Shown piece by piece: positions 36,563 through 52,524 of a stretch of DNA of 54,021 bases (its first letter is position 1; each line of letters begins with the position of its first letter). Below the pieces are notes generated by a model. It was not told the origin of the DNA. It made no database searches and worked only from the letters and a program-made list of their open reading frames with translations. The stretch spans positions 1-54,021 of the forward strand of contig CALHLC010000021.1 of assembly GCA_938034385.1 (NCBI GenBank). The letters run 5' to 3'. The stretch comes from an uncultured Bacteriovoracaceae bacterium. GTDB lineage: Bacteria > Bdellovibrionota > Bacteriovoracia > Bacteriovoracales > Bacteriovoracaceae. Both the position numbers and the translations under genes were made by a program.

Positions 36563-36979
36563 CTAATGACCGACTTTAAGTCGAGGATATCTAATTAACT
36601 CTTTCAAAGAAGAATTGATTTTAATTAAAGAATCACCTGAGACATTATTTAGAGCAGAGGCTCTTGTAGGTAGTTGACCTTTAGAATTGCTTGTTGAAAT
36701 TTGATTCAGCCTTTGAAGTTTTGAAACATGTGGAACAGAAGTTATAACTTTTGGAACACACTTGCTATTAGTAACAAAACCTTTCAGCTTAGATTTTCCA
36801 CAATCAACTTTGAAAAACTCAATATCGCTTATTCTTTTGGCTCTTGTTACAGAGATAGGTTGGTAATTGCAGCCTTTCTTTTTGAAAGATTCTATTTTAT
36901 CTTCACAGGCCAAGAAAGCTTGTAAATGAGTCAAGTCTTTTGCAGAAGTAGTGAAAGACATAAAAAATAAAATTATCAT
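36563..36979 (-). CDS. Small exported protein of unknown function
   Basis: About 138 residues with an N-terminal signal peptide (MIILFFMSFTTSA). Four Cys (LACEDK, KKGCNY, KVDCGK, NSKCVP) are spaced for two disulfides. I choose ATG 36979 because it overlaps the upstream cytochrome-like lipoprotein stop as ATGA; an ATG four codons earlier is possible. No family is recognised. Co-expression with the lipoprotein suggests a shared envelope role. Confidence 0.6.
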   Translation of the reverse strand: MIILFFMSFTTSAKDLTHLQAFLACEDKIESFKKKGCNYQPISVTRAKRISDIEFFKVDCGKSKLKGFVTNSKCVPKVITSVPHVSKLQRLNQISTSNSKGQLPTRASALNNVSGDSLIKINSSLKELIRYPRLKVGH

Positions 36980-38619
36980 GGTCCCATACATTGCGTGACT
37001 CCTAGGAAAAATTCGAGATCATCTTTTCTTAATAATAAATCTTCTTCAATAAAAGGGGATAATGATCCATCTGCTCCTATATGAACAAATTCAATAGATT
37101 CTGTAATAGATTGGAAGTCGATTACTCCCATTCCAAGGTTTGTTCCAGTTTGGGCCAATGTAGGTAAATATCCGCCTTGAGCTGGTGCTTGGTGAGAATT
37201 AAATCCACCTGCATGACAAGAGTTACATGTATTTAAAGAAGTTCTATACATTGCATAAGTAGCTTCATGAGGATCGAGAACAACTGCGTTGAAAGGAGGA
37301 TTATTTGCTTCTTTATTCATAAAAAAGTTTTTTCCCCAATTTGATCCATCTTCTGTTGCGAGTCCACTAATAACTTGAAATTCTAAATGCCAAGCTAGAT
37401 GCTTTTGTTCAAACTCATAGTCTAGGTCTGGACTCTTAATTGTTTGAAAATTATCTGTGAAGAACTTCATAATATCAAAAGATCCATTAGGCGATGGTTG
37501 TGATACATCTGAATTTATAATTAGAGCTTCAGCTACATCTGCATAATTATCTTTAGGTGTCTTGGGCATTCTATGTCTATGTAGCCTTCCATCAGTAGGG
37601 TCAAGACGAAATTCGAAAATTCCCCAAGCAACATCAGTTGCATTTGTATTCTGATCAGATCGTAATTGTAAAAAATCTGCAATTCTTAATTGTCCAAGAG
37701 CACTTCCGTTTACCCACTTATTAGTAGGGTAGTCAGCATAGCTTACTCTTTTTGCTAGTTTCTGAAGATGATCAGTATGATCTTGCCCGCTAAGACAGTT
37801 TAATTTTCCAAACTCTACTGCCCAATCTTCTCTTGTGAATGCTTCTTGAGACTCACCATTTAAAGTAGCTGCTTCAAGAGGTAATTTAAATTCAAAGATG
37901 ACATGGTTTTCTAGTTTAATTGGAAAGCCTTCATGCATAACAGTTCCAGCGATATCGTCTTTTAACTTATATAAAAATCTGAACTCCCCAGCATTAATTT
38001 CATTGCCATCGGCATCTACTTCGAAGAGATCAGGTCTATAAACAATTGCTTTTAAAGTATATGGGCTTGAGCTAGGAGATAATACCTTATCAACTTGTGG
38101 TCCAATTGGGGCCCAATTATCTCTGATTTTATCAGCACTAATATTTCTGGATCTCATATCATTAATTTCACCTGTAAGAATTTTAGTAGGATCTATTTGA
38201 GTTAATCTATAGCCATCAATATAATCACGAGTAAAAAGATTGAATGATCTTGCTCCCCTTAAAGTATTGATAACTTGGTGAAATCCAAAAGTAGAATTAA
38301 AACTTGTTAGTAATGCTGGGTCTTTAAAAATCAAGACTTTATTAATATCCATTGATTTAATTTCAGAGTTTCCATTACAAAGACAGGCCTTAACATTCAT
38401 CGTCGTTGTAGTAGTAGATGAAGTAGAGGTGGAGGTCGATGTAGAAGTGGATGTTGAAGTCGATGTTGACGTAGAAGTCGAAGTTGATAGAGTTGTTGAG
38501 CTCGAAGTTGATGTTGAACTAGATGTAGTTGTTGATTTTTTAGAATCTAGTGAACTTTCCATCGTTGGGTTACAACTAAGAAAACTAATTAATAGTATTA
38601 TTAACAATGACTTATTCAA
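36976..38619 (-). CDS. Lipoprotein with Ser/Thr repeat linker and a c-type haem motif
   Basis: A 547-residue protein starting at TTG with a strong GGAGG seven bases upstream. A signal peptide ends in FLSC, a lipobox-like site. Residues about 25-75 are almost only Ser and Thr, in an ST-type repeat, probably an extended, flexible tether. The globular part follows. Near the C-terminus CNSCH (465-469) is a canonical covalent haem-binding site, inside TSLNTCNSCHAGG, so the mature protein should be a surface or periplasmic cytochrome. No axial Met can be assigned with confidence. Other Cys occur at KACLCNG and at the extreme C-terminus (QCMGP). It leads the 138-residue exported protein. A TATAAT (38653-38648 on the minus strand) is a possible -10 box. 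Confidence 0.72.
   Translation of the reverse strand: MNKSLLIILLISFLSCNPTMESSLDSKKSTTTSSSTSTSSSTTLSTSTSTSTSTSTSTSTSTSTSTSSTTTTTMNVKACLCNGNSEIKSMDINKVLIFKDPALLTSFNSTFGFHQVINTLRGARSFNLFTRDYIDGYRLTQIDPTKILTGEINDMRSRNISADKIRDNWAPIGPQVDKVLSPSSSPYTLKAIVYRPDLFEVDADGNEINAGEFRFLYKLKDDIAGTVMHEGFPIKLENHVIFEFKLPLEAATLNGESQEAFTREDWAVEFGKLNCLSGQDHTDHLQKLAKRVSYADYPTNKWVNGSALGQLRIADFLQLRSDQNTNATDVAWGIFEFRLDPTDGRLHRHRMPKTPKDNYADVAEALIINSDVSQPSPNGSFDIMKFFTDNFQTIKSPDLDYEFEQKHLAWHLEFQVISGLATEDGSNWGKNFFMNKEANNPPFNAVVLDPHEATYAMYRTSLNTCNSCHAGGFNSHQAPAQGGYLPTLAQTGTNLGMGVIDFQSITESIEFVHIGADGSLSPFIEEDLLLRKDDLEFFLGVTQCMGP
38400..38540. repeat. Degenerate hexanucleotide-like repeat encoding a Ser/Thr tract
   Basis: An imperfect tandem repeat of GTAGAA/GTCGAT/GTTGAT-like triplet pairs on the plus strand (minus-strand codons for Ser and Thr). 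The units are degenerate in the third position, which limits slippage, but in-frame length change of the linker is likely between strains. Confidence 0.8.
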
Positions 38620-38729: not shown

Positions 38730-39875
38730 TTATTTTACCAGACATTCCTTTAAGAGGTTTTTAGCAATAATCATAATCATGACTTCATTGGTTCCTGCTC
38801 CAATTTCCATCAGTTTATTATCTCTGAGGTATCTCTCAACAGGGAATTCCCTAGAGTATCCATAACCTCCATGGAGCTGAATTGCATCAAGAGCTATCTT
38901 AGTAACCATTCTTGGGATGACAAGTTTAACTTGAGCGGCAAGAGCATTTCCGCCTTTACCCTCATCGTATTCTTTACAGGCACTATATAAAAACCTCCTC
39001 ATCATTTCAGTTTCAGCACTCATATCAGCAATCATTTTCTGAATAAGTTGGAAGTTTCCAATTGGTTTTCCAAACTGAGATCTCTCTTTTGCATATTTAA
39101 TACATTGATCAACACAGGCCTGAGCTATCCCTAATGAGATTCCTGAAATAGTAATTCTTTCAAGGTCTAAGTTTTTCATCATATGGTAAACGGAATCACC
39201 TTCCTCTCCAACACGATTACTGATAGGCACTTTGACATTTTCAAGAGTAAGTTCTCCTGTAGGAGAAGCTCTCATTCCCATTTTATGAATTTCTTTACTA
39301 ACACTGAAGCCAGGTGAGTTATTTTCAATTATAAAAGTAGAAATATTTTTCTTATCCTTTCCAGTTCGAGCGTAGATATAAGAAATATCTGAAAACTGTG
39401 CATTCGTGATCCACATTTTATTTCCAGTAATAGAATAATGATTGCCATTTAAAGTTGCTTTGGTTTGTAGTCCTACCGCATCTGACCCGTAACCTGGCTC
39501 ACTCATTCCCATACAACCTATATGTTCACCGGAGATAAGCTTTGGAAGATATTTTTGTTTTTGTTCATGGCTTGCATTCTTATCCATATTGTTTACACAC
39601 AACATTGAATGGGCCAGGTAACTAAGAGTTGAAGAAGCACATACCTTACCGAATTCCTCCATTACAATGGTCGCTTCTAGAGAACCTAGTCCAGATCCAC
39701 CATATTCTGTCCCGGCAGTAATTCCTAGAACACCTAGTTCACCCATTTTTTTGAAAGCATCGATATTGAATGTTTCATTATTGTCATGATGTTCTGCTTT
39801 AGGAGCTAATTCTTTGTTTGCAAAGTCTCTACAAACTTCTTTTAATTGATTTTGCTCTTCAGTGAAAAACCACAT
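38730..39875 (-). CDS. Isovaleryl-CoA-dehydrogenase-like acyl-CoA dehydrogenase
   Basis: A 381-residue acyl-CoA dehydrogenase of the isovaleryl-CoA type. The C-terminal catalytic loop reads IGAGTNEV, without the EGT Glu of most family members. The base is instead Glu239 in NLDLERITISG, matching the position found in isovaleryl-CoA dehydrogenase. FAD-binding marks GMSEPGYGSDAVGL and KMWITNAQ are intact. The expected step is oxidation of isovaleryl-CoA in leucine breakdown. The remaining leucine-degradation genes are not in the window. It stands alone between divergent and same-strand neighbours. Confidence 0.93.
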   Translation of the reverse strand: MWFFTEEQNQLKEVCRDFANKELAPKAEHHDNNETFNIDAFKKMGELGVLGITAGTEYGGSGLGSLEATIVMEEFGKVCASSTLSYLAHSMLCVNNMDKNASHEQKQKYLPKLISGEHIGCMGMSEPGYGSDAVGLQTKATLNGNHYSITGNKMWITNAQFSDISYIYARTGKDKKNISTFIIENNSPGFSVSKEIHKMGMRASPTGELTLENVKVPISNRVGEEGDSVYHMMKNLDLERITISGISLGIAQACVDQCIKYAKERSQFGKPIGNFQLIQKMIADMSAETEMMRRFLYSACKEYDEGKGGNALAAQVKLVIPRMVTKIALDAIQLHGGYGYSREFPVERYLRDNKLMEIGAGTNEVMIMIIAKNLLKECLVK

Positions 39876-40017: not shown

Positions 40018-41757
40018 ATGCAAACTCCGAATTCACTTAATCAAAAAATATTTAAATCAAAAGAATATTTTAAAAACATTCCAGAAAATCTTGAAACCAT
40101 AAAATGGTTTAGATATTGGGAAATTCCATCCAAAAATTGGCCAGATTACTTTGAAGCAACTGAAAAGAATCAATTTATTTTTGTTCCAATTCATTGGGGA
40201 TATCATTTTAGGCAAGAACATAATATTTATGATTTTGATTCTAATCAAGATTTTAACTTAGGTTATATTGAAAGGTTGGCTACCGAATATGAGAGAGAAA
40301 TTATATTTTTTATTCCGACTGGTCCTTATCCTTTTGATGTTAGGGGAGGTGTTCCGCAACATCTTTTTCACCAATCAGTAGATTTAAACTCTATACCAAG
40401 AGTAGTAAAAAACTCTAAAAATGAACTTTGTAGGATCCCATCTTTTTATGATCAAAATATGTATAAAGAGTATGCAAGGTTTTTGGTTTCACTTTATGAA
40501 AGTTGCAAAAAAAGAAAATCAAAAGTTAGGATTAAAGGCTTAAGTGCTGGTTACTTTGAAGATAAAAACTTTAATACTTTTTTTAATGATTCTTCTAAAA
40601 CCTTTTTGGAGAGTTTTGAGAGATATCTAAGTGCTAGTGAGATAGAGGATGTAAGCTTGTCTGACGTCTATGACTTCAGAGAAATGGTTTCTAATTTATT
40701 TTTGAGCGCTAGCGAAAAATATTTAGGTGCTTATTGGGATGGAGACTTAAAGATGGTTTTCCATGGAGCAAAGTCTGATGATATTTTATATTCTACTATT
40801 TTTAAAAATGTAGATGAACATTATTTTCATGATTTACAATTAGCAGTGAAGGATGGTTACTTAACTTCTACTGAAATGGTAAATAGCTCTCACGAAGATC
40901 AAGTCTTTAATAGGGCCTATAGTGAAATGATGAACTATTCATATATTGAGTCCATTGTATTTGATGATTTTCATCTTCAGAATAACTTGAGATTTACTCC
41001 TCTTATTTTTGCTAAAATATTTTCTCGTGATAAATTTGATTTAATATCAACCGGAATTTTAGATTATTTTGAAAAAAACTGCTCTCATCATTATCAAATA
41101 ATTGATGGAGTTTATAATGAAGACCTTGAACAAGAAAATGAATCAATTTCGATTTGCTTTTCTAGATATTTAGGAAATAAAGAGTTTCAAGAAATTTTAA
41201 ATAATTTCTCAGAAGGAGCTAATATTATATTAGATCTTTCGTGTATGACTCTAGATCATAGAAAACAATTGGAACTTTTCTTATCTAGTCACGAAACTGA
41301 TTCACAACATATTAACCTCATAGGGCCAGTCTCTTATTATCAATTAGGTCATGGTAATTTAGTAACTTTTGAAAGTGAGCACTTCCAAGGATCTAATCTT
41401 AGTAAGAGAAATCATTTTTGGGGAAGATTATTAAGTGTCTTTTCCTTGAGAACTTTAAAGATTGATTTAGCTCATGGTGTGAGTTGTTTTGTCTTAAAAA
41501 GAGAAGTCACTCCATATGAATTAAATTATAAGGAAGTCAGGAGAGTCTTTTTATATAATACGACTAATTCTTCAAAGTCAGTCTTTATACATTCATCTAA
41601 AGAGTCAGCATTTTTAAAATATAAAAATCAATTAAGCACAGAAGTTACATCTACGCCTAAAGGTGTTGAAATAGAGATGGAAAAAAATGGAAGTGTTATT
41701 TTAGATTTTGGAATAATTAAGGATAATCATGAAAAAAGAACTCATCGTACTATATAG
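40018..41757 (+). CDS. GH35/GH42-like TIM-barrel protein lacking the NE catalytic motif
   Basis: About 579 residues, starting at ATG 40018 (AAGGA nine bases upstream); a TTG three codons earlier sits too close to this site. Residues 51-118 follow the opening of GH35/GH42 glycosidases: FIFVPIHWGYHF, NIYDFD, DFNLGYIERLATE, EIIFFIPTGPYPFDVRGGVPQ, comparable to the family pattern W..HE...G.YDF...FI..A...L.VILR.GPY..EW..GG.P. In the families the next strand ends in ENEYG with the acid/base Glu; here it reads IKGLSAGYF, so the acid/base seems to be lost. The C-terminal part (from about 350) resembles the trimerisation-like region. It may bind or modify polysaccharide without hydrolysis. It overlaps the following gene by 29 bp. 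Confidence 0.6.
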   Translation: MQTPNSLNQKIFKSKEYFKNIPENLETIKWFRYWEIPSKNWPDYFEATEKNQFIFVPIHWGYHFRQEHNIYDFDSNQDFNLGYIERLATEYEREIIFFIPTGPYPFDVRGGVPQHLFHQSVDLNSIPRVVKNSKNELCRIPSFYDQNMYKEYARFLVSLYESCKKRKSKVRIKGLSAGYFEDKNFNTFFNDSSKTFLESFERYLSASEIEDVSLSDVYDFREMVSNLFLSASEKYLGAYWDGDLKMVFHGAKSDDILYSTIFKNVDEHYFHDLQLAVKDGYLTSTEMVNSSHEDQVFNRAYSEMMNYSYIESIVFDDFHLQNNLRFTPLIFAKIFSRDKFDLISTGILDYFEKNCSHHYQIIDGVYNEDLEQENESISICFSRYLGNKEFQEILNNFSEGANIILDLSCMTLDHRKQLELFLSSHETDSQHINLIGPVSYYQLGHGNLVTFESEHFQGSNLSKRNHFWGRLLSVFSLRTLKIDLAHGVSCFVLKREVTPYELNYKEVRRVFLYNTTNSSKSVFIHSSKESAFLKYKNQLSTEVTSTPKGVEIEMEKNGSVILDFGIIKDNHEKRTHRTI

Positions 41758-42115
41758 AAAATTAAATACTAATTCTAAGTCGAGGTCATTTCAATTGTTA
41801 TCATTGTTTTCTTATAAGGGAAGAATTGATTCCGGTAGAATTGCACAATTGTATAGAGAATTTTTTAAGTCTGATAGTAGATTTAGTGAAAAGTTTATTT
41901 TTGATTCCACTGATGAATTTAAAAATTTTATTAATTTAGTGGCCCATGAATATAGATTAACTCATGTGAAGTTTCTTGATCTTAAAAGTTATTATAAAAT
42001 TATTTCTGAATGTGGTAAACAAGAAGATTTTTCTCGCATTATAGAGTCAATTGATCTTCATAAAGTTCAGGGAGTAGAAGGAACAAGCCTAATTGATCGT
42101 ATTTTTTCTTTCTAA
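41729..42115 (+). CDS. Small protein of unknown function coupled to the GH35-like gene
   Basis: A 128-residue basic, helical, cytoplasmic-looking protein with no signal peptide and no motif that I recognise. The start has AAGGATAATC upstream and lies 29 bases inside the GH35-like gene, so translation should be coupled. Its 3' end overlaps the convergent NlpC-like gene by 27 bp. I see no basis for a function. Confidence 0.6.
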   Translation: MKKELIVLYRKLNTNSKSRSFQLLSLFSYKGRIDSGRIAQLYREFFKSDSRFSEKFIFDSTDEFKNFINLVAHEYRLTHVKFLDLKSYYKIISECGKQEDFSRIIESIDLHKVQGVEGTSLIDRIFSF

Positions 42116-43036
42116 CCAAAATGGTTCATCAGGAGTTTGAAGATTAGTTCTGTCATAAAGAACTTCATGGCTACGACCAACCTTTCTTAGTTTGAAATCT
42201 GTATCATCAAGTTTTAATTCTTTAACATCTTTATAAATTTTATCTATATCCCAAAAAGTAATTTTGATATGACTCTCTGATGATTTTGCCCAGGATTGCG
42301 CATCTTTTGAGGAGAAAAACTTAAGCATAGAAACTTTATGCTTAGTATGTGGAGGTCCAATTAAACTCATTGGAATCAAAATATCTTTATCCCATGAAGA
42401 TTGCGACTTATCTGTATCTAGACCGGCAATTTCACTAACTGCATGAGAAAAGGCCATGCAACCTGCACCTTCTAGATATCTAGGGTGCTTATCAAGTCCT
42501 GAATATACTCGATCTTGTTTTTTTTCTTTATACTCAATTAAATATTTTTCAATCCTATCAATAGTCTTCTTAGATAATAGATAGCTAACTGTTTGAACCC
42601 GACCTGATTGTTTCTTTGCGCTAAGTTCTGGTTGAAGGCGATGAGGATTTTCTAAAGTTCCTGGATATTCAGCTAGCAACAAACCAAGACCTACTTGATC
42701 TGATAATAATCTTTTGTAAAGATCTTTGCTGGTATCTGACATGCTTGTAAATCGATAAAAATTACCATCATAACTTTGAACCTCTATGGCAACGTGAGAG
42801 ATTATTCTATTAAAAGGAGATACTGCATTTTTTAAACTCGAAACTAACAATTGTTGTGGACTCGACCAATCAATACCAAAAGGACTAGAGTAAAAGTGAA
42901 TACTTAAATGACCATGGCCTTGATAAAAAGGATCAATCTCATTTAATAATGTTTTATTGGTAGGATATCGATCAGTTCGTTTATAAACTGAAATGATTAC
43001 AATAGGGACAATAAATAAAGTTAACCACTTAAACAT
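42089..43036 (-). CDS. Membrane-anchored permuted NlpC/P60-like hydrolase
   Basis: A 315-residue protein with an uncleaved-looking N-terminal membrane anchor (1-18). His81 lies at the start of a strand (ISHVAIEV) and Cys193 at the start of a helix (GAGCMAFSHAV). This His-before-Cys order is what the circularly permuted NlpC/P60 group (YiiX/YaeF-like, LRAT-like) shows, whereas ordinary NlpC/P60 proteins have Cys first. The third catalytic residue is not assigned. Members cleave or transacylate amide or ester bonds in peptidoglycan or lipids. It lies 27 bp from the coiled-coil lipoprotein, on the same strand, so the two are probably co-transcribed. Confidence 0.6.
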   Translation of the reverse strand: MFKWLTLFIVPIVIISVYKRTDRYPTNKTLLNEIDPFYQGHGHLSIHFYSSPFGIDWSSPQQLLVSSLKNAVSPFNRIISHVAIEVQSYDGNFYRFTSMSDTSKDLYKRLLSDQVGLGLLLAEYPGTLENPHRLQPELSAKKQSGRVQTVSYLLSKKTIDRIEKYLIEYKEKKQDRVYSGLDKHPRYLEGAGCMAFSHAVSEIAGLDTDKSQSSWDKDILIPMSLIGPPHTKHKVSMLKFFSSKDAQSWAKSSESHIKITFWDIDKIYKDVKELKLDDTDFKLRKVGRSHEVLYDRTNLQTPDEPFWLERKNTIN

Positions 43037-43063: not shown

Positions 43064-44767
43064 TTATTTAAAGTCTCTTAAGGAAATATCGTTTAACTCT
43101 TGATCTGTTGTATATTCCTTACAAGTTGCCTGGGCCTCACTTAATCTTGAAATATTGAGTGTTTGAGCATCAAGTTTTAAGAAATAAGGACTTGAACAAA
43201 TTTCCAAGAACTCTGTAAAACTTGGAGCAAACTTTGAAACTTGCTTAGAATATTCACTCTTTGCTTTTGAATTATTTGAATCAAATAAGATTTCATTTTT
43301 TAAGTTTTCTAAAATCGGTCTTAATTGAACGAACTCAGTTTTTCTTTTAAAGAGTCTGCTTGTAATTTGATTAATACTATTTTCTAAGGTCTTACTTGAA
43401 TAATTTGAATAGGCTTGAACTTGGCAATATTGATTATATTTCTTTACATCAACTAACTTCTTATCAAGGCAATGTGGGTTTGATGCTTTAAGCTTAGAGC
43501 AACTTTGAATATAACTATTAAGGTTTTTATTTAAGCTATTCTTAAAAGTTTGTAATATATCTAACATGAAGGTTGTTTTTTTCTTAGATGCATAATGCTT
43601 TTTATAAATTTCCACTAAATCAATATCTTTTTTTAACATCAGGTAATTACTTGAGATTGCCTGATATCCATGAGTGAATTTTGTATTACATAAATCTTTT
43701 TCAATTTCGGCAGGAGTTTTCTTTGGTGGAGCTGGTGTAGGCTTAGGCTTTGGCATTGGCTTTTCCGGCCTTATTACAGTAACTGCTTTTTTATGTGCAT
43801 TATAAGTAGGTAATAACATTTTTCTTGTAGTTTCAATTGAAGAGATATTACAGTTTTGTTTTGAAGCAAGAGCATTCTCTCTTAGGTTTGAATCATTTTT
43901 ACACTTATCATAATCAAAGTATTGGTATGACTTAAGTAGGGTACAGTTGTTTTTTAAACTTTGATATAAATCAGTATATTTCTTCTCTTCATTGTTATAA
44001 AGGTAGAAGTATTTATTTTCAAATTCTTGAGCTAAGGTTTCAATGTTTTCTTGTCGAGCTCTTCCTAATTCTTGTTTTAATTGGATTAAACGTGAGTTTA
44101 CTACATCCACTCTCTTTCTTTGAAGATCTATCCCTTCAACTAATTCGGAATACTTTGTACATAGTAATTGCTCTCTAACGATTTTATCTGGATCTAGATT
44201 GATGTGAACAATATTTTTAACATTGTATTTAGATCGAACTTCATCATTGATTTTATTAATTGTATTTACAAAATAGTTAAAATTACAATATTGTGCAATA
44301 CCCTTATCTTCCAATGTTTTAGTAGATCTTTGAATAACTAAGCTTGTCTGGTTGTTATGATTATAAGAGCAAATAAGATTATCCTTTACTCTTTCTGTCT
44401 TAAAATAAGTTTTCTTCTCTTCTAAGATTTTTATAGTTCCTAGTAATTGATTACAACTTTTTTCAAGCTCTAGGACTGATCCAGTAGTTAATGCTAACTT
44501 TTCTTTATAATTATTGACTTCTTTTTTAGATGTCATTGATTCAAAACTATCGTTTTGGGCCTTTATATTATTAGTTAGAGAGTTGAAGTCCTCTATGAGC
44601 TCTAAGTGTTGTATCTTTAGCTCTGGAGTACATTTTAAAGCTTCTTGCGTTTTAGTAGGAGTAACTTCTGGTTTGTTTTTTACAGATGAACCGATTCTTT
44701 TGATTGGTTGTCCACAGCTCAGTAAAACGAGCATAAGAAAAGGTAGTAATTTCAGTAATTTAGCCAT
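43064..44767 (-). CDS. Long coiled-coil lipoprotein
   Basis: About 567 residues. I choose ATG 44767 (GGAG eight bases upstream) over a GTG three codons earlier. The signal peptide ends in VLLSC, placing the lipidated Cys at residue 18. The mature part is mostly Lys/Glu/Gln-rich helix with Cys scattered in pairs (for example CNQLL, CSYN, CNFN, CTLL). A Pro-Lys hinge (PEKPMPKPKPTPAPPKKTP) separates two helical halves. No family is recognised. A structural envelope role is suggested by the shape only. Confidence 0.65.
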   Translation of the reverse strand: MAKLLKLLPFLMLVLLSCGQPIKRIGSSVKNKPEVTPTKTQEALKCTPELKIQHLELIEDFNSLTNNIKAQNDSFESMTSKKEVNNYKEKLALTTGSVLELEKSCNQLLGTIKILEEKKTYFKTERVKDNLICSYNHNNQTSLVIQRSTKTLEDKGIAQYCNFNYFVNTINKINDEVRSKYNVKNIVHINLDPDKIVREQLLCTKYSELVEGIDLQRKRVDVVNSRLIQLKQELGRARQENIETLAQEFENKYFYLYNNEEKKYTDLYQSLKNNCTLLKSYQYFDYDKCKNDSNLRENALASKQNCNISSIETTRKMLLPTYNAHKKAVTVIRPEKPMPKPKPTPAPPKKTPAEIEKDLCNTKFTHGYQAISSNYLMLKKDIDLVEIYKKHYASKKKTTFMLDILQTFKNSLNKNLNSYIQSCSKLKASNPHCLDKKLVDVKKYNQYCQVQAYSNYSSKTLENSINQITSRLFKRKTEFVQLRPILENLKNEILFDSNNSKAKSEYSKQVSKFAPSFTEFLEICSSPYFLKLDAQTLNISRLSEAQATCKEYTTDQELNDISLRDFK

Positions 44768-44851
44768 AAAAAGCACTCCAGTTTAATATAATCTCTGATA
44801 TTTTCTCTTATTTTGAGATCAGTTACTTAAAAGCTTGTAATCATTTCAGTA

Positions 44852-45991
44852 ATGTTTAAGTTTTTGACACTTTTAGGCTATGGTGAGGCCATGGAATCGA
44901 TATTTGATTTTAACTTTCAAGAGATGCAAGAATATTGTACTGACGAACTTGGTTCTAAGCCTTTCCTTGCTACTCAAATCTTTGACTGGATTTATAAAAA
45001 GAAGAATTTTAATGTCGATCAGTGGACGAATGTCTCGAAAGTAAATAAAGCTAAAATTCTTGAAAATTTTAGTTTTGAGCTTCCTAAAATTATTTGGATA
45101 GGTGAGTCTAAAGATGGAACTAGAAAATTCTTAGTTCGCCTCCATGATAAACAAACTATTGAATGTGTTGTTATACCAGCAAAAGATAGAAGAACTTTAT
45201 GTGTTTCCTCTCAAGTAGGCTGTGCTATTGGATGTACTTTTTGTCATACTGGCACTCAGGGACTAACAAGACATTTAAAAACCTCCGAGATAGTCGGACA
45301 ATACCTTGAGATATCGAGATGGTTAGTTGAGAAAGGTGCTAACCCAATTTCTAATATCGTCTACATGGGACAGGGGGAGCCTTTACATAATTATGACAAC
45401 GTGAAAAGGTCCGCTGAATTATTGATAGATCCAAAGGGAATGGGTCTTGGTCAGAGAAGAATCACACTTTCAACTTCTGGATTAGTCCCTAAAATTGAAC
45501 AACTCTTTAATTTTCCTTCAGTGAATATTGCTATTTCACTTCATAGTGCAAGAAATGACGTAAGAACAGAACTAATGCCCATTAACAAGGTCTATGATCT
45601 AGAACGACTCTTTAGAGCTATCAAGTCTATTCCTTTGAAAGCGAGTCGAAGAATTACTTATGAATATATTTTAATTAAAGACTTAAATGATTCTCCTCAA
45701 GACCTTGATGCTTTAGTTGAACTTCTTGATAGGAAAGAGTCCAAAATTAATATAATCCCTTTTAATGAATATCCTGAATCCAAATTTAAAAGACCAAGTG
45801 ATGAAAAAATTCAGTGGTTTAACGATACTTTAAATAAAAGAGGATTTACTTCTACTGTTAGGATTTCAAAAGGTGATGATATTCTGGCTGCTTGTGGTCA
45901 ATTAAAATCAGAATTTGAAAAGAAGAATCTTTGGAGTGCTGGTAAGCAAAAAGAGATTGAAGAGAATAAAACAACTCAGATCTTCAGGTAG
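44852..45991 (+). CDS. rlmN: 23S rRNA A2503 / tRNA A37 methyltransferase RlmN
   Basis: A 379-residue radical SAM enzyme that methylates C2 of A2503 in 23S rRNA and A37 of some tRNAs. CAIGCTFC (Cys124, 128, 131) binds the iron-sulfur cluster; Cys117 (RTLCVSSQVG) and Cys348 (GDDILAACGQL) are the equivalents of the two catalytic cysteines in the E. coli enzyme. The GQGEPLHNYDNV and LSTSGL motifs are intact. The start is uncertain: ATG 44852 lacks a ribosome site and an ATG at 44891 (MESIFDFNF) matches the usual N-terminus of the family better, so up to 13 residues may be false. Confidence 0.94.
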   Translation: MFKFLTLLGYGEAMESIFDFNFQEMQEYCTDELGSKPFLATQIFDWIYKKKNFNVDQWTNVSKVNKAKILENFSFELPKIIWIGESKDGTRKFLVRLHDKQTIECVVIPAKDRRTLCVSSQVGCAIGCTFCHTGTQGLTRHLKTSEIVGQYLEISRWLVEKGANPISNIVYMGQGEPLHNYDNVKRSAELLIDPKGMGLGQRRITLSTSGLVPKIEQLFNFPSVNIAISLHSARNDVRTELMPINKVYDLERLFRAIKSIPLKASRRITYEYILIKDLNDSPQDLDALVELLDRKESKINIIPFNEYPESKFKRPSDEKIQWFNDTLNKRGFTSTVRISKGDDILAACGQLKSEFEKKNLWSAGKQKEIEENKTTQIFR

Positions 45992-46919: not shown

Positions 46920-47681
46920 TTAATCTTCCTGGACCTGGGCCACAGTCATGATAATTGAAATATTATCATTACCTCCATGATGGTTTGCTCTATCAATTAA
47001 GGCCTGAACCAACTCATCTAAGATTTGAGGTGTTGTCTTACTTGGATCAGGAATATATTGATTAATCATTTCAATCATTTCTTTGTCATAAACCTTACTA
47101 TAAAGTCCATCTGAGCATAATAAGAACATATCATTTTTACTTATAGAGTATTCAAATGAGTCGATTTGCATATCTTCTTCAAATCCAATTGTTCTAACTA
47201 AAACGTTTTTCATTCTATCTCTACTTGCTTCATCTCTAGTGATGATTCCAAGATTAATTTTTTCTTGAACTAAAGAGTGATCTTTAGTTAATTGATATAA
47301 TCTCCCTTCACTAATTAAGTAGGTTCTAGAATCACCAATATTAGCGATATAGGCCTTATTTCCCTCTATACACATACTAACTGCAGTTGTTCCCATTCCT
47401 TTAAGAAGTGGTTCTGTCTGAGATTTTTCCATGATTTTAGTGTTAGCCATTTTAATACATTTTAAGACGTCTTTAATTTTATTTTTAATTGTTCCTTGAA
47501 CAGAATTAAAATGTTCACCAAAAATTTTGGTTGTTAATTGGGAGGCAATATCCCCACCTCTATGCCCGCCCATACCATCAGCGACAATAAAGCATTTATG
47601 ATTTGGATTAATATAGATTGAATCCTGATTAGATTTTCTAACTTTCCCAATATCAGATTTTCCGGTGCATATTAAAGGCAT
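46920..47681 (-). CDS. PP2C-family Ser/Thr phosphatase
   Basis: A 253-residue soluble PP2C (PPM) phosphatase. Metal-binding and catalytic residues appear as SNQDSIYI (Asp20), VADGMGGH (Asp35, Gly36), GDSRTYLI, CSDGLYSKV and GNDNISI, in family order. It dephosphorylates Ser/Thr and would counter the Hanks-type kinase or PrkA. The start has AGGAGGGCGA before the ATG. It is divergent from prkA with a 161-bp shared region, which suggests linked control. Confidence 0.95.
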   Translation of the reverse strand: MPLICTGKSDIGKVRKSNQDSIYINPNHKCFIVADGMGGHRGGDIASQLTTKIFGEHFNSVQGTIKNKIKDVLKCIKMANTKIMEKSQTEPLLKGMGTTAVSMCIEGNKAYIANIGDSRTYLISEGRLYQLTKDHSLVQEKINLGIITRDEASRDRMKNVLVRTIGFEEDMQIDSFEYSISKNDMFLLCSDGLYSKVYDKEMIEMINQYIPDPSKTTPQILDELVQALIDRANHHGGNDNISIIMTVAQVQED

Positions 47682-47842: not shown

Positions 47843-49897
47843 ATGTCTATAAATATCCATGACTTTATCGATAAACACTACAATTCTGAAGATTATTCTC
47901 ATTTAAATTGGGAAGGTACTTTTCAAGAATATGTAGATTTAGTTTTAAATAATCCTATGATTACAAGAAACTCATTTCAAAGAATCCATGACATGATTAT
48001 AGCTTCTGGAACTTCTCAATATACTGAGTATAAAAAAGAAATTACTCGTTATCACTTCTTTGATGATTTATTAGAAAATGGAAAAGATGCAATCTTTGGA
48101 ATTGATGTTCACTTAATGAAGTTTGTAAATTTTTTCAAAGCAGCAGCTGCTGGTTATGGAACTGAAAAAAGAGTTTTACTTCTTCATGGACCTGTTGGTT
48201 CAGCAAAATCATCAATCGCTAGGCTTTTGAAAAAAGGATTAGAGCATTATTCTAAAACAGACGATGGAGCGTTATATACTTATGAATGGTTTGATAATGA
48301 AGGATCTGAAATCTTAGGTGGAGAAAAGATTTTTGCTTGTCCTATGCATGAAGAACCACTCAAGTTAATTCCTCTAGATGCAAGAGCAAAACTTTTAGAA
48401 GAGATTAATCAAAAAAGTGATTTTCATAAAATAAATGTTAAAGGTGAAGTTAACCCTGCGTGTAGATTTATTTTTGATCAATATATGAGAAAGTATGATG
48501 GAGACTGGTCCAAAGTAATGGAGCATGTGAGAATAAAAAGATTAATTTTAAGCGAAAAAGATAGAATTGGAATTGGAACATTTCAACCTAAAGATGAAAA
48601 AAATCAAGACTCTACAGAGTTAACTGGTGATATTAATTATAGAAAAATTGCAAAGTATGGATCAGACTCTGACCCTAGAGCATTTAACTTTGATGGAGAG
48701 TTTAATATTGCAAATAGAGGGATAGTAGAGTTTATAGAGATGCTAAAGCTTGATGTTGCATTTTTATATGATCTTTTAGGTGCTTCTCAAGAACAAAGTA
48801 TTAAGCCTAAAAAGTTTGCTCAAACTCATATTGATGAAGTAATCCTTGGTCATACAAATGAGCCGGAGTTTAAAAAATTACAAAATAATGAATTCATGGA
48901 AGCTCTAAGAGATAGAACTGTAAAAATTGATGTGCCTTATATTACGCGTTTGGATCAAGAAATTAGAATCTATCAAAAAGATTATAATGAAAATACTTTG
49001 CCAGTTCATATTGCTCCTCACACGCTTGAGATGGCTTCAACTTGGGCAATCTTAACTCGTTTAGAAGATCCTAAGAAAGCTGATCTTACAGCGATGCAGA
49101 AGCTAAAACTTTATAATGGAAAAACTCTGCCAGGTTATACAGAAGATAATGTTAAGGAGTTAAGAAAAGAATCTGTAAGAGAAGGATTAGAAGGAATTTC
49201 TCCAAGATATATTCAAGATAAAATATCAAATGCTCTTGTTAAAAACACTCACACAGGTTGCTTGAACCCATTCATGGTTTTTAATGAATTAGAAAGTGGT
49301 TTAAAAAATCATGCTCTCATTAATAGTCCAGATAAAATGGATCAATATAAAGAACATCTCTCAATTTGTAGGTCTGAGTATGAAGACATCGTTAAAAACG
49401 ATGTGATGAAAGCAATAAGCGTTGATGAAGGTGCTATTCAAACACTTTGTTCAAACTATATTGATAACGTTAAGGCCTATACTCAAAAAGAGAAGATTCG
49501 AAATAAATACTCTAATAAGCTTGAAGATGCTGATGAGAGATTTATGAGAGCGATTGAGGGGAAGATTGATATTCCTGAATCTCGTAAAGATGATTTTAGA
49601 CGAGAGATAATGAATTATATCGGTGCCCTTGCTATAGAAGGCAAGCAATTTGATTATAAAACTAATGAGAGATTACACAGGGCCTTAGAGTTAAAACTTT
49701 TTGAAGATCAAAAAGATACGATTAAACTGACAACTCTTATTTCAAATGTTGTTGATAAACAGACCCAAGAAAAAATTGATGTTGTAAAATCTAGACTTGT
49801 GAAAAACTTTGGTTATTGCGATATCTGTGCAACAGATGCCTTAAACTATGTAGCAAGTATCTTCGCAAAAGGTGATACTGTAACTAAGAGAGGGTAG
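47843..49897 (+). CDS. prkA: PrkA serine protein kinase
   Basis: A 684-residue PrkA (YeaG) family AAA-like Ser kinase with an N-terminal ATPase domain. The Walker A is GPVGSAKSS (116-124), then a Walker B-like region (RGIVEFIEM) and the C-terminal PrkA domain. The ribosome site AGGAGG is strong. PrkA, YeaH (DUF444) and SpoVR occur together in many bacteria and act in stress or sporulation-like responses; their exact role here is unknown. It is separated by three bases from yeaH and is the first gene of a three-gene operon. Confidence 0.96.
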
Positions 49898-49900
49898 TCT

Positions 49901-51016
49901 ATGGATCACCCAATAAAAAGCGATCACAATCGCTTTAGAAAAATTGTAAAAGGTAAGCTAAGAGAAAATCTTAAAGGATTCGTTTCTCAGGGTAAACAAG
50001 TCATTCCTAAAGGAAAAGATCAATTTACTATTCCTATGCCATCCATTGAAATTCCAAAATTTAAATTTGGTGGGAAGTCTGAAGGTGGTGTTGGTCAAGG
50101 TGACGGGCAAGAAGGACAACCAGTTCAAGGTGATGGTGAAAAAGGCGAAGGTAAGCCAGAAAAGGCCGGTCAAGATGAAGGGCAGAAACAATTAGAGGTG
50201 AATTTTTCTCTTGAAGAACTTGCTTCAATATTATCTGAAGAATTAGAACTCCCTAACATCCAGCCCAAAGGTTCGTCTCAAATTGATGCAACAGTTAATA
50301 AGTATACAAGTATTGGAACGACTGGCCCTGATTCATTAAGGCATTTAAAAAGAACATATAAGCAATCATTAAAGAGACAAGTCTCTATGGGAATGTATGA
50401 CTCTGAAAATCCAGTGATTTTACCAACAAGGAAAGATTATAGATTTCGAGCTAGCCAATCCAAAATAGAAAAAAAAAATAATGCAGTAGTTATTTATATG
50501 ATGGATGTTTCAGGCTCTATGGGTGATGAGCAAAAAGAAATTGTTCGAACGGAGAGTTTTTGGATCAACCTTTGGCTTAAGCATCAGTATAAAGACATTG
50601 AAGTAAGATATATTATCCATGACGCTACTGCTAAAGAGGTAGAGGAAGAAGTTTTTTTTAAAACAAGAGAAAGTGGTGGGACTCTAATAAGTTCAGCTTA
50701 TAAATTATGTAGAGATATTATTAAAGCAGACTATCCTGTGAGTGATTGGAATATCTATCCATTTCACTTCAGTGATGGTGATAATTGGTCGAGTGATGAT
50801 ACTAAGATTTGTCTAGATTTATTAAATACTGAAATTTTGCCAGTATCAAATATGTTTGGTTACGGGCAAGTTGAGAGTCGTTATGGTTCAGGACAATTTT
50901 ATAAAGATCTTTTTGCTGCTTATAATGAAAAAACTGAAAATATTATTTTAAGTAAAATTAAAAACCGAGATGCTATTTTAGATTCTATAAAAGAGTTTTT
51001 AGGGAAAGGTAAGTAA
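49901..51016 (+). CDS. yeaH: YeaH/DUF444 family protein (VWA domain)
   Basis: A 371-residue protein of the DUF444/YeaH family. The N-terminal part is basic, then a Gly/Gln/Lys-rich linker (about 57-95). A von Willebrand A-type domain follows with the MIDAS motif MDVSGSM (Asp202), typical of metal-dependent protein binding. The family's partners are PrkA and SpoVR. An AGGG site precedes the ATG. The stop TAA overlaps the spoVR ATG as TAATG. Confidence 0.96.
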   Translation: MDHPIKSDHNRFRKIVKGKLRENLKGFVSQGKQVIPKGKDQFTIPMPSIEIPKFKFGGKSEGGVGQGDGQEGQPVQGDGEKGEGKPEKAGQDEGQKQLEVNFSLEELASILSEELELPNIQPKGSSQIDATVNKYTSIGTTGPDSLRHLKRTYKQSLKRQVSMGMYDSENPVILPTRKDYRFRASQSKIEKKNNAVVIYMMDVSGSMGDEQKEIVRTESFWINLWLKHQYKDIEVRYIIHDATAKEVEEEVFFKTRESGGTLISSAYKLCRDIIKADYPVSDWNIYPFHFSDGDNWSSDDTKICLDLLNTEILPVSNMFGYGQVESRYGSGQFYKDLFAAYNEKTENIILSKIKNRDAILDSIKEFLGKGK

Positions 51017-52524
51017 TGCTTAGAAGTAAACCTATCAATGAAAAGTTAAAAAAATTACAAATTGAAATACAAGGTTATGCTGATGAGTATGGACTAGATT
51101 ATTTCCCTCAAATTTTTGAGATGTGTGATTATCAAACAATTAATATTCTAGCAGCACAAGAAGGTTTTCCGACAAGATATCCGCATTGGCGTTTTGGAAT
51201 GCAGTTTGATCAAATGAGTAAAGGCTATAGATTTGGAATTCAGAAAATCTATGAAATGGTTATCAATACTAATCCTTGTTATGCCTACCTTTTAGAGGTA
51301 AATAATTGGGTTGATCAAAAACTAGTAATGGCCCATGTTTATGGACATAATGATTTTTTTAAAAATAATGCTTGGTTTGCAAATACTGATAGAAAAATGA
51401 TGGATACTATGGCCAATCATGGTGCCAAAGTTAGAAGGTATATAGAAAAATATGGAATTGATAGAGTAGAGAATTTCATTGATGCGATTTTATCTCTTGA
51501 AAATCTCATTGATATGAATCACCTTTTTGAAACAGATGAAATTAGAAATCAAAGAGAAGAGACTAATAAGCAATTTGCATATGAAAACTCTCTTGAGTAT
51601 GAGGCCTATGATAAAAAATCAGATGCTCTAAAAACTTATCTTCGATCAAAAAATAGATCAGCTAGAAAAGAGATGGAGATCAATGTAGAGGACATTCCTA
51701 ATATTCCTAAAAGCATTCCAGAAAAACCAGTTAAAGATATTCTACATTTTCTTTTAGAGTACGCTCCAATTGAAGAATGGGAAGCAGATATTATCGGTAT
51801 CTTGAGAGAAGAAGCATATTATTATCTCCCTCAAAGAATTACTAAGATTATGAATGAAGGCTGGGCCAGTTATTGGCATTCGAAAATTATGACTGAAAAG
51901 GCCCTAGATGCTTCTGAAATCATCGACTTTGCTGATAAACATGCAGGTGTCATGGTGATGAGTAAAGAGAGAATTAACCCTTATAAAGTAGGAATAGAGC
52001 TCTTTAGAGATATAGAACATAGATGGGATACCGGTAAGTTTGGGAAGGAATATCTAGAGTGCAATAATATGGTTGATAAGCATAGTTGGGATCAAAAGCT
52101 TGGAAAAGGAAAAGAGAAAATTTTTCAAGTAAGAAAAACTCATAATGATATATCTTTTATTGACGAATTTTTAACTCCTGAATTTTGTGAACGTCAACAG
52201 ATGTTTACCTATAAGTACAACCCTAGGTCACATCGATTTGAAATTGATAAAAGAGATTTTGAAGCTATTAAGCAGAAATTACTAATGAGTCTTACGAATT
52301 TTGGATCCCCTGTCATTGAATTAGTTGATGCTAACTTTGATAATAAAGCTGAGATTCTTTTGAGCCATAGGCATGATGGAGTTGATCTTGATGCAAAATA
52401 TGCAAACGAAACTTTAAAGAATATTTTTAGAGTTTGGAAAAGACCTGTCAACCTTGCAACGACTTATGAAGAGAAGGAAGTGATTTTTAGATTTGATGGT
52501 AAAGAGCTTTCGGTTAAGTCTTAG
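51016..52524 (+). CDS. spoVR: SpoVR/YcgB family protein
   Basis: A 502-residue SpoVR family protein. Diagnostic stretches include YFPQIFEMCDYQTIN, the GFPTRYPHWRFGM region, MAHVYGHNDFFKNN, NEGWASYWHSKIM and LEYAPIEEWEADIIGI. The family was first linked to spore cortex formation in Bacillus but is widespread in non-spore-formers, so sporulation is not implied. Translation is coupled to yeaH through TAATG, with AAAGG six bases before the ATG. The 3' end overlaps the convergent lipoprotein gene by four bases. Confidence 0.96.
   Translation: MLRSKPINEKLKKLQIEIQGYADEYGLDYFPQIFEMCDYQTINILAAQEGFPTRYPHWRFGMQFDQMSKGYRFGIQKIYEMVINTNPCYAYLLEVNNWVDQKLVMAHVYGHNDFFKNNAWFANTDRKMMDTMANHGAKVRRYIEKYGIDRVENFIDAILSLENLIDMNHLFETDEIRNQREETNKQFAYENSLEYEAYDKKSDALKTYLRSKNRSARKEMEINVEDIPNIPKSIPEKPVKDILHFLLEYAPIEEWEADIIGILREEAYYYLPQRITKIMNEGWASYWHSKIMTEKALDASEIIDFADKHAGVMVMSKERINPYKVGIELFRDIEHRWDTGKFGKEYLECNNMVDKHSWDQKLGKGKEKIFQVRKTHNDISFIDEFLTPEFCERQQMFTYKYNPRSHRFEIDKRDFEAIKQKLLMSLTNFGSPVIELVDANFDNKAEILLSHRHDGVDLDAKYANETLKNIFRVWKRPVNLATTYEEKEVIFRFDGKELSVKS

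What the first reader, a model, noticed from the sequence alone, without database searches (positions are those of the whole stretch)
40018..42115. GH35/GH42-like pseudo-glycosidase coupled to an orphan small gene
The opening of a GH35/42 barrel is clear, but the strand expected to carry ENEYG reads GLSAGYF. The protein lacks a signal peptide and is coupled (29-bp overlap) to a 128-residue unknown. It may have evolved from a hydrolase to a binding or synthesis role.
Basis: partly seen in the sequence, partly recalled or inferred. Interest (0 to 1): 0.55.

Follow-up and report, generated by a model that had tools for sequence, protein, structure and literature searches.

The report
Dead GH35-type enzyme with conserved partner
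A bacterium of a predator-rich family, like nearly all its relatives, carries a sugar-cutting-enzyme look-alike that has lost its cutting residues and is always followed by the same small partner gene; gene neighbourhoods hint that the pair helps build or control the outer-membrane lipid.

Summary
Gene A (40018-41757, 579 aa) has a GH35-type barrel opening, its acid/base strand reads IKGLSAGYFE, it lacks a signal peptide, and it overlaps gene B (128 aa) by 29 bp. 'Orphan' is wrong: A is in 123 and B in 121 of 129 genomes of the family; B follows A in 60 of 60 loci (51 genomes); both are under purifying selection (dN/dS 0.065, 0.055). A second lineage (~430 aa) bridges A to cytosolic GH35 proteins of the GlmA exo-glucosaminidase / IaSGT glucosyltransferase branch. 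In 30 of 30 A proteins the NE acid/base is absent and two subsite -1 positions are replaced; by length the nucleophile region is probably missing. A is therefore very probably a pseudoenzyme. In the second lineage the barrel gene sits in a lipid A biosynthesis cluster, between LpxH and its own partner gene; in the window's family A-B often lies upstream of RlmN-SppA-LapB (15 of 20 genomes). Best guess: a non-catalytic glucosamine/lipid A-intermediate binder or regulator working with B. Pseudoenzyme and pairing are well supported; the LPS role is inference. No usable structure of A was obtained (pLDDT 31).

The parts
40018..41757 (+). Gene A: 579-aa cytosolic GH35-derived pseudoenzyme (GlmA/IaSGT branch)
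   Evidence: ORF; homologues in 123 of 129 family genomes; profile matches; dN/dS 0.065
40105..40356 (+). Residues 30-113: barrel opening (W41, H63, D72-F73, GG110-111, P113) matching GH35 strands 1-3
40186..40188 (+). Pro57, in the column of the subsite -1 Tyr (Tyr52 of IaSGT); Pro in 30 of 30
   Evidence: alignment printed; count; residue role from PMC8861115 passages
40333..40335 (+). Phe106, near the column of the subsite -1 Glu (Glu102 of IaSGT); F/I/Y in 30 of 30
   Evidence: my reading of the register from the GG motif
40531..40560 (+). Residues 172-181 IKGLSAGYFE: strand 4 without the Asn-Glu acid/base
40588..40590 (+). Asp191, invariant in 30 of 30; matches the Asp that intact GH35-like enzymes keep 12 residues after the acid/base
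41140..41442 (+). Residues 375-475: second domain, homologous to the second domain of the sister lineage
41443..41715 (+). Residues 476-566: C-terminal part (conserved R495, E501, R508, R509, N514, K534, G565), absent from the sister lineage
41729..42115 (+). Gene B: 128-aa partner, overlaps A by 29 bp
   Evidence: adjacent in 60 of 60 loci; 121 of 129 family genomes; dN/dS 0.055; model pLDDT 75.8
42086..42112 (+). C-terminal tail SLIDRIFSF of B; family motif like GLFGKIF in 26 of 30, 0.3 of 30 expected in shuffled proteins
38730..39875 (-). Acyl-CoA dehydrogenase, divergent neighbour (53 of 60 loci); context, not a proven part
44852..45991 (+). RlmN, downstream neighbour (same strand in 17 of 20 genomes sampled); context, not a proven part

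Best explanation
Gene A encodes a cytosolic pseudoenzyme descended from a GH35 protein of the GlmA exo-beta-glucosaminidase / IaSGT beta-1,2-glucosyltransferase branch. It kept the first half of the barrel and the second domain. It lost the acid/base Asn-Glu, two sugar-binding positions of subsite -1 and, judged by length, the stretch that should carry the nucleophile. It is made together with gene B as a fixed two-gene unit, a single-copy core feature of its family. Most likely mechanism: A binds, without cleaving, a glucosamine-containing cytosolic ligand such as a lipid A intermediate (UDP-diacyl-GlcN, lipid X or the lipid A disaccharide) and, with B, scaffolds or regulates LPS synthesis. 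Shown: homology, residue losses, pairing, purifying selection, lipid A gene context of the sister lineage. Inferred: a physical A-B complex, ligand binding, the LPS role in this family.
For: Homology: A1 vs sister profile A4 hhalign E 3e-9, 396 columns (column shuffles at best 0.023; unrelated profile pairs 0.075-0.31). A4 vs nine intact GH35-like enzymes 8.7e-8, vs IaSGT 1.3e-16, vs NCBIfam exo-beta-D-glucosaminidase 3e-5. Losses: NE in 0 of 30; N175-E176 of IaSGT falls in an insertion and NETNFMW in a gap; Pro57 30 of 30, no Glu in 100-109 30 of 30; acid/base column to second-domain glycine 220-248 residues in 20 f1 proteins against 352-414 in 4 intact enzymes. Pairing: 123 and 121 of 129 genomes, the same six lack both; 60 of 60 loci adjacent. 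Selection: dN/dS 0.065 and 0.055. Context: sister barrel lies between LpxH-like and partner genes in 8 of 8 regions for LpxH, with LpxB, LpxK and an acyltransferase in the six regions whose contigs reach that far; LapB within 7.2 kb downstream in 15 of 20 f1 genomes.
Against: No structure of A (pLDDT 31), so fold and active site are not seen. Glu occurs at residue 176 in 6 of 30 and at 181 in 13 of 30 members, so single members might keep some activity. In f1 the dehydrogenase (53 of 60) and RlmN (17 of 20) are linked to A-B at least as often as LapB, so LapB may be ordinary synteny; in the window's own contig LapB is absent. The partners of the two lineages are not recognisably homologous.
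Confidence: 0.45

Rival explanations
1. A-B is a pseudoenzyme pair as above but with a role unrelated to LPS, for example a scaffold in fatty-acid, translation or predation-cycle control; the lipid A context belongs only to the sister lineage.
For: In f1 the most constant neighbours are an acyl-CoA dehydrogenase (53 of 60 loci) and RlmN (17 of 20); the sister locus continues into rpsF and rplI in 8 of 8 regions. A-B is nearly universal in f1 and absent from 238 of 239 other genomes sampled, as a lineage trait would be.
Against: Two lineages each place the barrel near LPS genes; the ancestral fold handles glucosamine or glucose.
Confidence: 0.35
2. A is an active glycosyltransferase or hydrolase that uses other carboxylates (for example Asp72 and Asp191, or member-specific Glu at 176/181).
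For: Asp191 is invariant (30 of 30) and Asp72 nearly so (29 of 30); IaSGT shows that this branch includes a transferase without hydrolytic activity (passages of PMC8861115).
Against: Asp191 matches an Asp that intact GH35-like enzymes keep in addition to their catalytic Glu, and Asp72 lies in the GH35 DF motif, so both look structural; no Glu of the barrel region is near-invariant; subsite -1 residues are gone.
Confidence: 0.12
3. A-B is a mobile toxin-antitoxin or defence pair.
For: Two coupled genes with a short overlap and no database name.
Against: Vertical, single-copy, near-universal in one family with constant neighbours; no relative in viral contigs. PADLOC was not searched.
Confidence: 0.02
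4. A is a decaying enzyme gene or a chance ORF.
For: No database hit for the window protein itself.
Against: dN/dS 0.056-0.071 in all three thirds; long open frames across the family.
Confidence: 0.01

Closest known systems
IaSGT (IALB_1185, Ignavibacterium album), GH35 beta-1,2-glucosyltransferase, PDB 7vkx/7vkw
   Same: GH35-type barrel plus second domain, no signal peptide; best PDB match of the joint profile (2.8e-13) and of the sister profile (1.3e-16)
   Different: IaSGT has Glu176/Glu343 and subsite -1 residues and is ~720 aa; A lacks them, is 579 aa, and is paired with B
GlmA exo-beta-D-glucosaminidases (GH35; PDB 5gsm, 5gsl; NCBIfam NF041127)
   Same: Barrel opening; joint profile E 1.6e-12 to 5gsl and 1.3e-8 to 5gsm; sister lineage matches NF041127 at 3e-5
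   Different: Active enzymes of ~780 aa with the catalytic Glu pair; A and the sister lineage lack it
Secreted GH35-like enzymes of the same phylum (L062-L070)
   Same: Homologous first half of the barrel (A4 8.7e-8, A1 1.6e-4)
   Different: They keep DNET and E(I/T)xGGW in 9 of 9, are ~700-900 aa, and a hydrophobic N-terminus is seen in 4 of 9
Sister lineage in families f3/f23 (barrel ~430 aa plus ~240 aa partner)
   Same: Full-length homology, NE lost, small partner gene directly downstream
   Different: No C-terminal part, non-homologous partner by hhalign, embedded in a lipid A cluster
Pseudo-glycosidases kept for a protein role (HPSE2 and beetle GH28 pseudoenzymes seen in listings and abstracts; Klotho and YKL-40 recalled)
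   Same: Glycosidase fold without catalysis, retained by selection
   Different: Other families, mostly secreted eukaryotic proteins; here bacterial, cytosolic and paired

Membership tests
GH35 (clan GH-A) | Sequence homology of the barrel to GH35 | tested here: met
   Profile only, first ~90 positions: 5gsl 2.7e-5; via the sister lineage 2.8e-13 to IaSGT, 1.6e-12 to 5gsl. The single window protein has no hit.
GH35 (clan GH-A) | Asn-Glu acid/base at the end of strand 4 | tested here: not met
   0 of 30 members; insertion/gap at this place
GH35 (clan GH-A) | Glu nucleophile on strand 7 | tested here: inconclusive
   No near-invariant Glu in the region and the spacing is ~100-190 residues short, but no reliable alignment of that region and no structure
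GH35 (clan GH-A) | Complete (beta/alpha)8 barrel | not testable with these tools
   Model of A unusable, pLDDT 31
GH35 (clan GH-A) | Subsite -1 Tyr and Glu (Tyr52, Glu102 of IaSGT) | tested here: not met
   Pro57 in 30 of 30; no Glu in residues 100-109 in 30 of 30
GH42 | Match to Pfam GH42 | tested here: not met
   GH42 not among the families matched by any of 30 A1 members at E <= 1; 4 of 13 sister members match weakly
Pseudoenzyme with retained role | Catalytic residue loss together with purifying selection | tested here: met
Obligate two-gene unit A-B | Co-occurrence and adjacency across the family | tested here: met
   123 and 121 of 129 genomes, same six lack both, both A-only cases at a contig edge; 60 of 60 loci
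Obligate two-gene unit A-B | Physical complex of the two proteins | not testable with these tools
   Needs co-purification or complex prediction
LPS / lipid A pathway component | Stable gene linkage to lipid A genes | tested here: inconclusive
   Sister lineage: clear. Window's family: LapB in 15 of 20 genomes, not in the window
Toxin-antitoxin / defence system | Match to a known system | not tested
   PADLOC was not searched; no Pfam or NCBIfam match

The most novel reading that the evidence does not exclude
An undescribed class of lipid A biosynthesis factor in Bdellovibrionota: a GlmA-type glucosaminidase that lost its chemistry and now senses or holds glucosamine-lipid intermediates in the cytosol, always with a lineage-specific partner, beside LpxH in one lineage and upstream of LapB in the other, setting LPS output in a predator-rich group of bacteria.
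Probability: 0.3. Interest if true: 0.75.

Novelty: new variant of a known kind. Interest (0 to 1): 0.58.

Why it matters
A single-copy gene pair kept by nearly a whole bacterial family yet unnamed in the family libraries searched is a good candidate for an important, lineage-defining function. If the lipid A link holds, it would be a new component in the synthesis or control of LPS in a phylum that includes well-known bacterial predators, and a clear case of a bacterial glycosidase turned into a non-catalytic regulator with a dedicated partner. Both points can be tested directly with a deletion strain and a purified complex.

Tried and rejected
Structure of A: only the window protein plus L031 (88% identical) was sent; pLDDT 31, not used. 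Structure of B: pLDDT 75.8 for the best of five models (the others 35.5-65.2); Foldseek best E 0.09, VIA-align best Z 5.2 (66 residues, 2.6 A, pantothenate kinase), read as no clear match; this neither excludes a known fold nor shows a new one. Viral contigs: 64 stretches matched a pattern, none encodes a relative. Pfam and PDB hits of B and its profile (EST1, G-alpha, sialate lyase) look like chance. Homology of the two lineages' partners: hhalign E 0.075, like the unrelated controls. A first locus script read the main gene in the wrong frame for minus-strand loci and was replaced. The joint alignment A7 sets the sister strand 4 a few residues off from A1 and A4, and in its profile a weak 'e' falls on Glu176 of IaSGT; statements on the acid/base rest on A1 alone, A4 alone and hhalign.

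The 60 loci are 51 genomes (nine fetched twice). The 20 regions are 20 genomes of 19 genera. In one search the second-domain glycine pattern was found in only 4 of the 9 intact enzymes.

Full report
WHAT IS THERE. Gene A runs from 40018 to 41757 (579 aa) and gene B from 41729 to 42115 (128 aa), same strand, overlapping by 29 bp. The window is a contig of a 2.67 Mb genome. The nearest relative, 88% identical in A, is titled 'uncultured Bacteriovoracaceae bacterium'; that family belongs to Bdellovibrionota. Between the two genomes dN/dS is 0.065 for A (0.056-0.071 in its three thirds) and 0.055 for B, between two housekeeping neighbours (dehydrogenase 0.025, RlmN 0.020) and two less conserved ones (0.108, 0.117). 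These are real, constrained genes.

NOT AN ORPHAN. A profile of 30 homologues of A (A1) finds A in 123 of 129 genomes of the order, all of one family (f1), and in 72 of 73 of the good-quality ones. In the 368 genomes sampled over the phylum, which include those 129, only one of the 239 others rings, weakly. A profile of gene B (A2) finds B in 121 of the 129 and in two of the other 239 at chance level. The six genomes without A also lack B. Two genomes have A without B; in both A runs to a contig edge (G031; G138). In the 60 loci examined (51 genomes) B follows A on the same strand every time, with -1 to 55 bases between the two profile matches; the dehydrogenase lies divergently upstream in 53 of the 60. 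B ends in a conserved tail (GLFGKIF-like) in 26 of 30 members, against 0.3 of 30 in shuffled proteins.

WHAT A DESCENDS FROM. The window protein alone matches nothing. The A1 profile reaches PDB GH35 structures over its first ~90 positions (5gsl E 2.7e-5). Pfam GH35 matches 11 of 30 members, at best 1.2e-4. While looking for true GH35 genes in the phylum I met a second lineage: proteins of ~370-450 aa in families f3 and f23. A search with one of them matched 13 f3 genomes, one f23 genome and one f1 gene A (7e-5), of 290 genomes. Their profile A4 matches A1 at E 3e-9 over 396 columns. Unrelated profile pairs gave 0.075-0.31 and 30 column shuffles gave at best 0.023. The second domain alone also aligns above its 30 shuffles (score 24.9 against at most 13.7). 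A4 matches IaSGT, a GH35 beta-1,2-glucosyltransferase without signal peptide, at 1.3e-16, nine intact GH35-like enzymes of the phylum at 8.7e-8; one member matches NCBIfam exo-beta-D-glucosaminidase at 3e-5. The joint profile A7 matches IaSGT at 2.8e-13 and 5gsl at 1.6e-12.

WHY IT SHOULD NOT BE A GLYCOSIDASE. According to PMC8861115 (passages) IaSGT uses Glu176, after Asn175, as acid/base and Glu343 as nucleophile, with Tyr52 and Glu102 at subsite -1. In A4's alignment to IaSGT the residues N175-E176 fall in an insertion; against the intact enzymes NETNFMW falls in a gap. In A1 no member has NE between residue 170 and Asp191 (0 of 30), and no column of that stretch has Glu in more than 13. 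All nine intact enzymes have DNET and the nucleophile motif. Asp191 is invariant and corresponds to the Asp that the intact enzymes keep 12 residues behind the acid/base, which supports the register. The subsite -1 Tyr is Pro in 30 of 30, and no Glu occurs in residues 100-109. From the acid/base column to the second-domain glycine there are 220-248 residues in 20 f1 proteins and 180-221 in the 13 sister proteins, against 352-414 in the four of nine intact enzymes where the glycine pattern was found. A stretch of roughly 100-190 residues that should carry the nucleophile strand is thus probably missing. Against this: Glu at 176 in 6 of 30 and at 181 in 13 of 30 could serve in single members, and no structure was obtained (pLDDT 31).

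WHERE IT SITS. In the sister lineage the barrel gene lies directly downstream of an LpxH-like gene (8 of 8 regions; NCBIfam NF003743 over its cut-off in 2 of 4 tested) and upstream of a ~240 aa partner gene. The partner is an ORF in all 13 loci aligned and was recognised by a one-sequence search in 5 of 8 regions. rpsF and rplI follow in 8 of 8. In six of the eight regions the contig reaches further and shows an acyltransferase, LpxK, LpxB and an oxidoreductase; LpxA is seen in two. In the proteins scanned, LpxA, LpxB and LpxK are over their NCBIfam cut-offs, the acyltransferase and the oxidoreductase below theirs. In the window's family, 7.2 kb downstream of A-B in 20 genomes of 19 genera holds RlmN in 17, SppA in 15 and LapB in 15, co-oriented. 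In the window RlmN is still at 44852, but DUF924, PP2C, PrkA, DUF444 and SpoVR genes follow instead of SppA-LapB. An LpxH-like gene, below its cut-off, lies elsewhere in this genome. LapB controls LpxC turnover and so LPS output in E. coli (abstracts in the listing).

READING. Shown: A is a GH35-derived protein of the GlmA/IaSGT branch that lost catalytic and substrate-binding residues in all 30 members examined, has no N-terminal hydrophobic segment, and forms a fixed genetic unit with B. Shown for the sister lineage: embedding in a lipid A gene cluster. Inferred: A and B form a complex; A binds a glucosamine-type ligand without turnover; the unit serves LPS synthesis or its control. The LPS step is the weakest, since in f1 RlmN and the dehydrogenase are linked at least as often as LapB.

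NOVELTY. Pseudo-glycosidases are known as a kind. A bacterial, cytosolic GH35 pseudoenzyme with an obligate partner and lipid A context did not appear in the paper searches made. That library lacks most subscription journals, and I saw listings and abstract openings, with passages only of PMC8861115 and PMC11656739. The latter counts 564 gene clusters conserved in and specific to Bacteriovoracaceae in its data set; this pair may be among them unnamed, which I could not check. I file the finding as a new variant of a known kind.

Noticed in passing
L124, L126-L130 (family f3): Lipid A supercluster: oxidoreductase (UDP-GlcNAc 3-dehydrogenase-like), LpxB, LpxK, acyltransferase, Cmk, inverted IspE-like gene, LpxH, barrel, partner, rpsF, rplI; LpxA seen at the end in L124 and L126.
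   Followed up: partly
L074 (G031, 1.6 Mb genome): In the smallest family genome seen, gene A runs into the contig end (261-aa open frame), so whether this small genome keeps B is unknown.
   Followed up: partly
L062, L064, L065, L066, L068: Some f1 genomes also carry a separate, intact GH35-like enzyme of ~820-880 aa with DNET and PEIQGGW motifs.
   Followed up: partly
window 47843-52524 (+): PrkA kinase, DUF444 and SpoVR genes in a row, with a PP2C phosphatase gene upstream on the other strand (46920-47681).
   Followed up: no
window 36976-38619 (-): 547-aa protein with a long Ser/Thr-rich tract near its N-terminus after a lipoprotein-like start; no credible family match.
   Followed up: no
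window 42089-43036 (-) and 43064-44776 (-): Two ORFs without credible Pfam or NCBIfam match between gene B and RlmN; no relatives found in the 20 downstream regions of other f1 genomes.
   Followed up: partly
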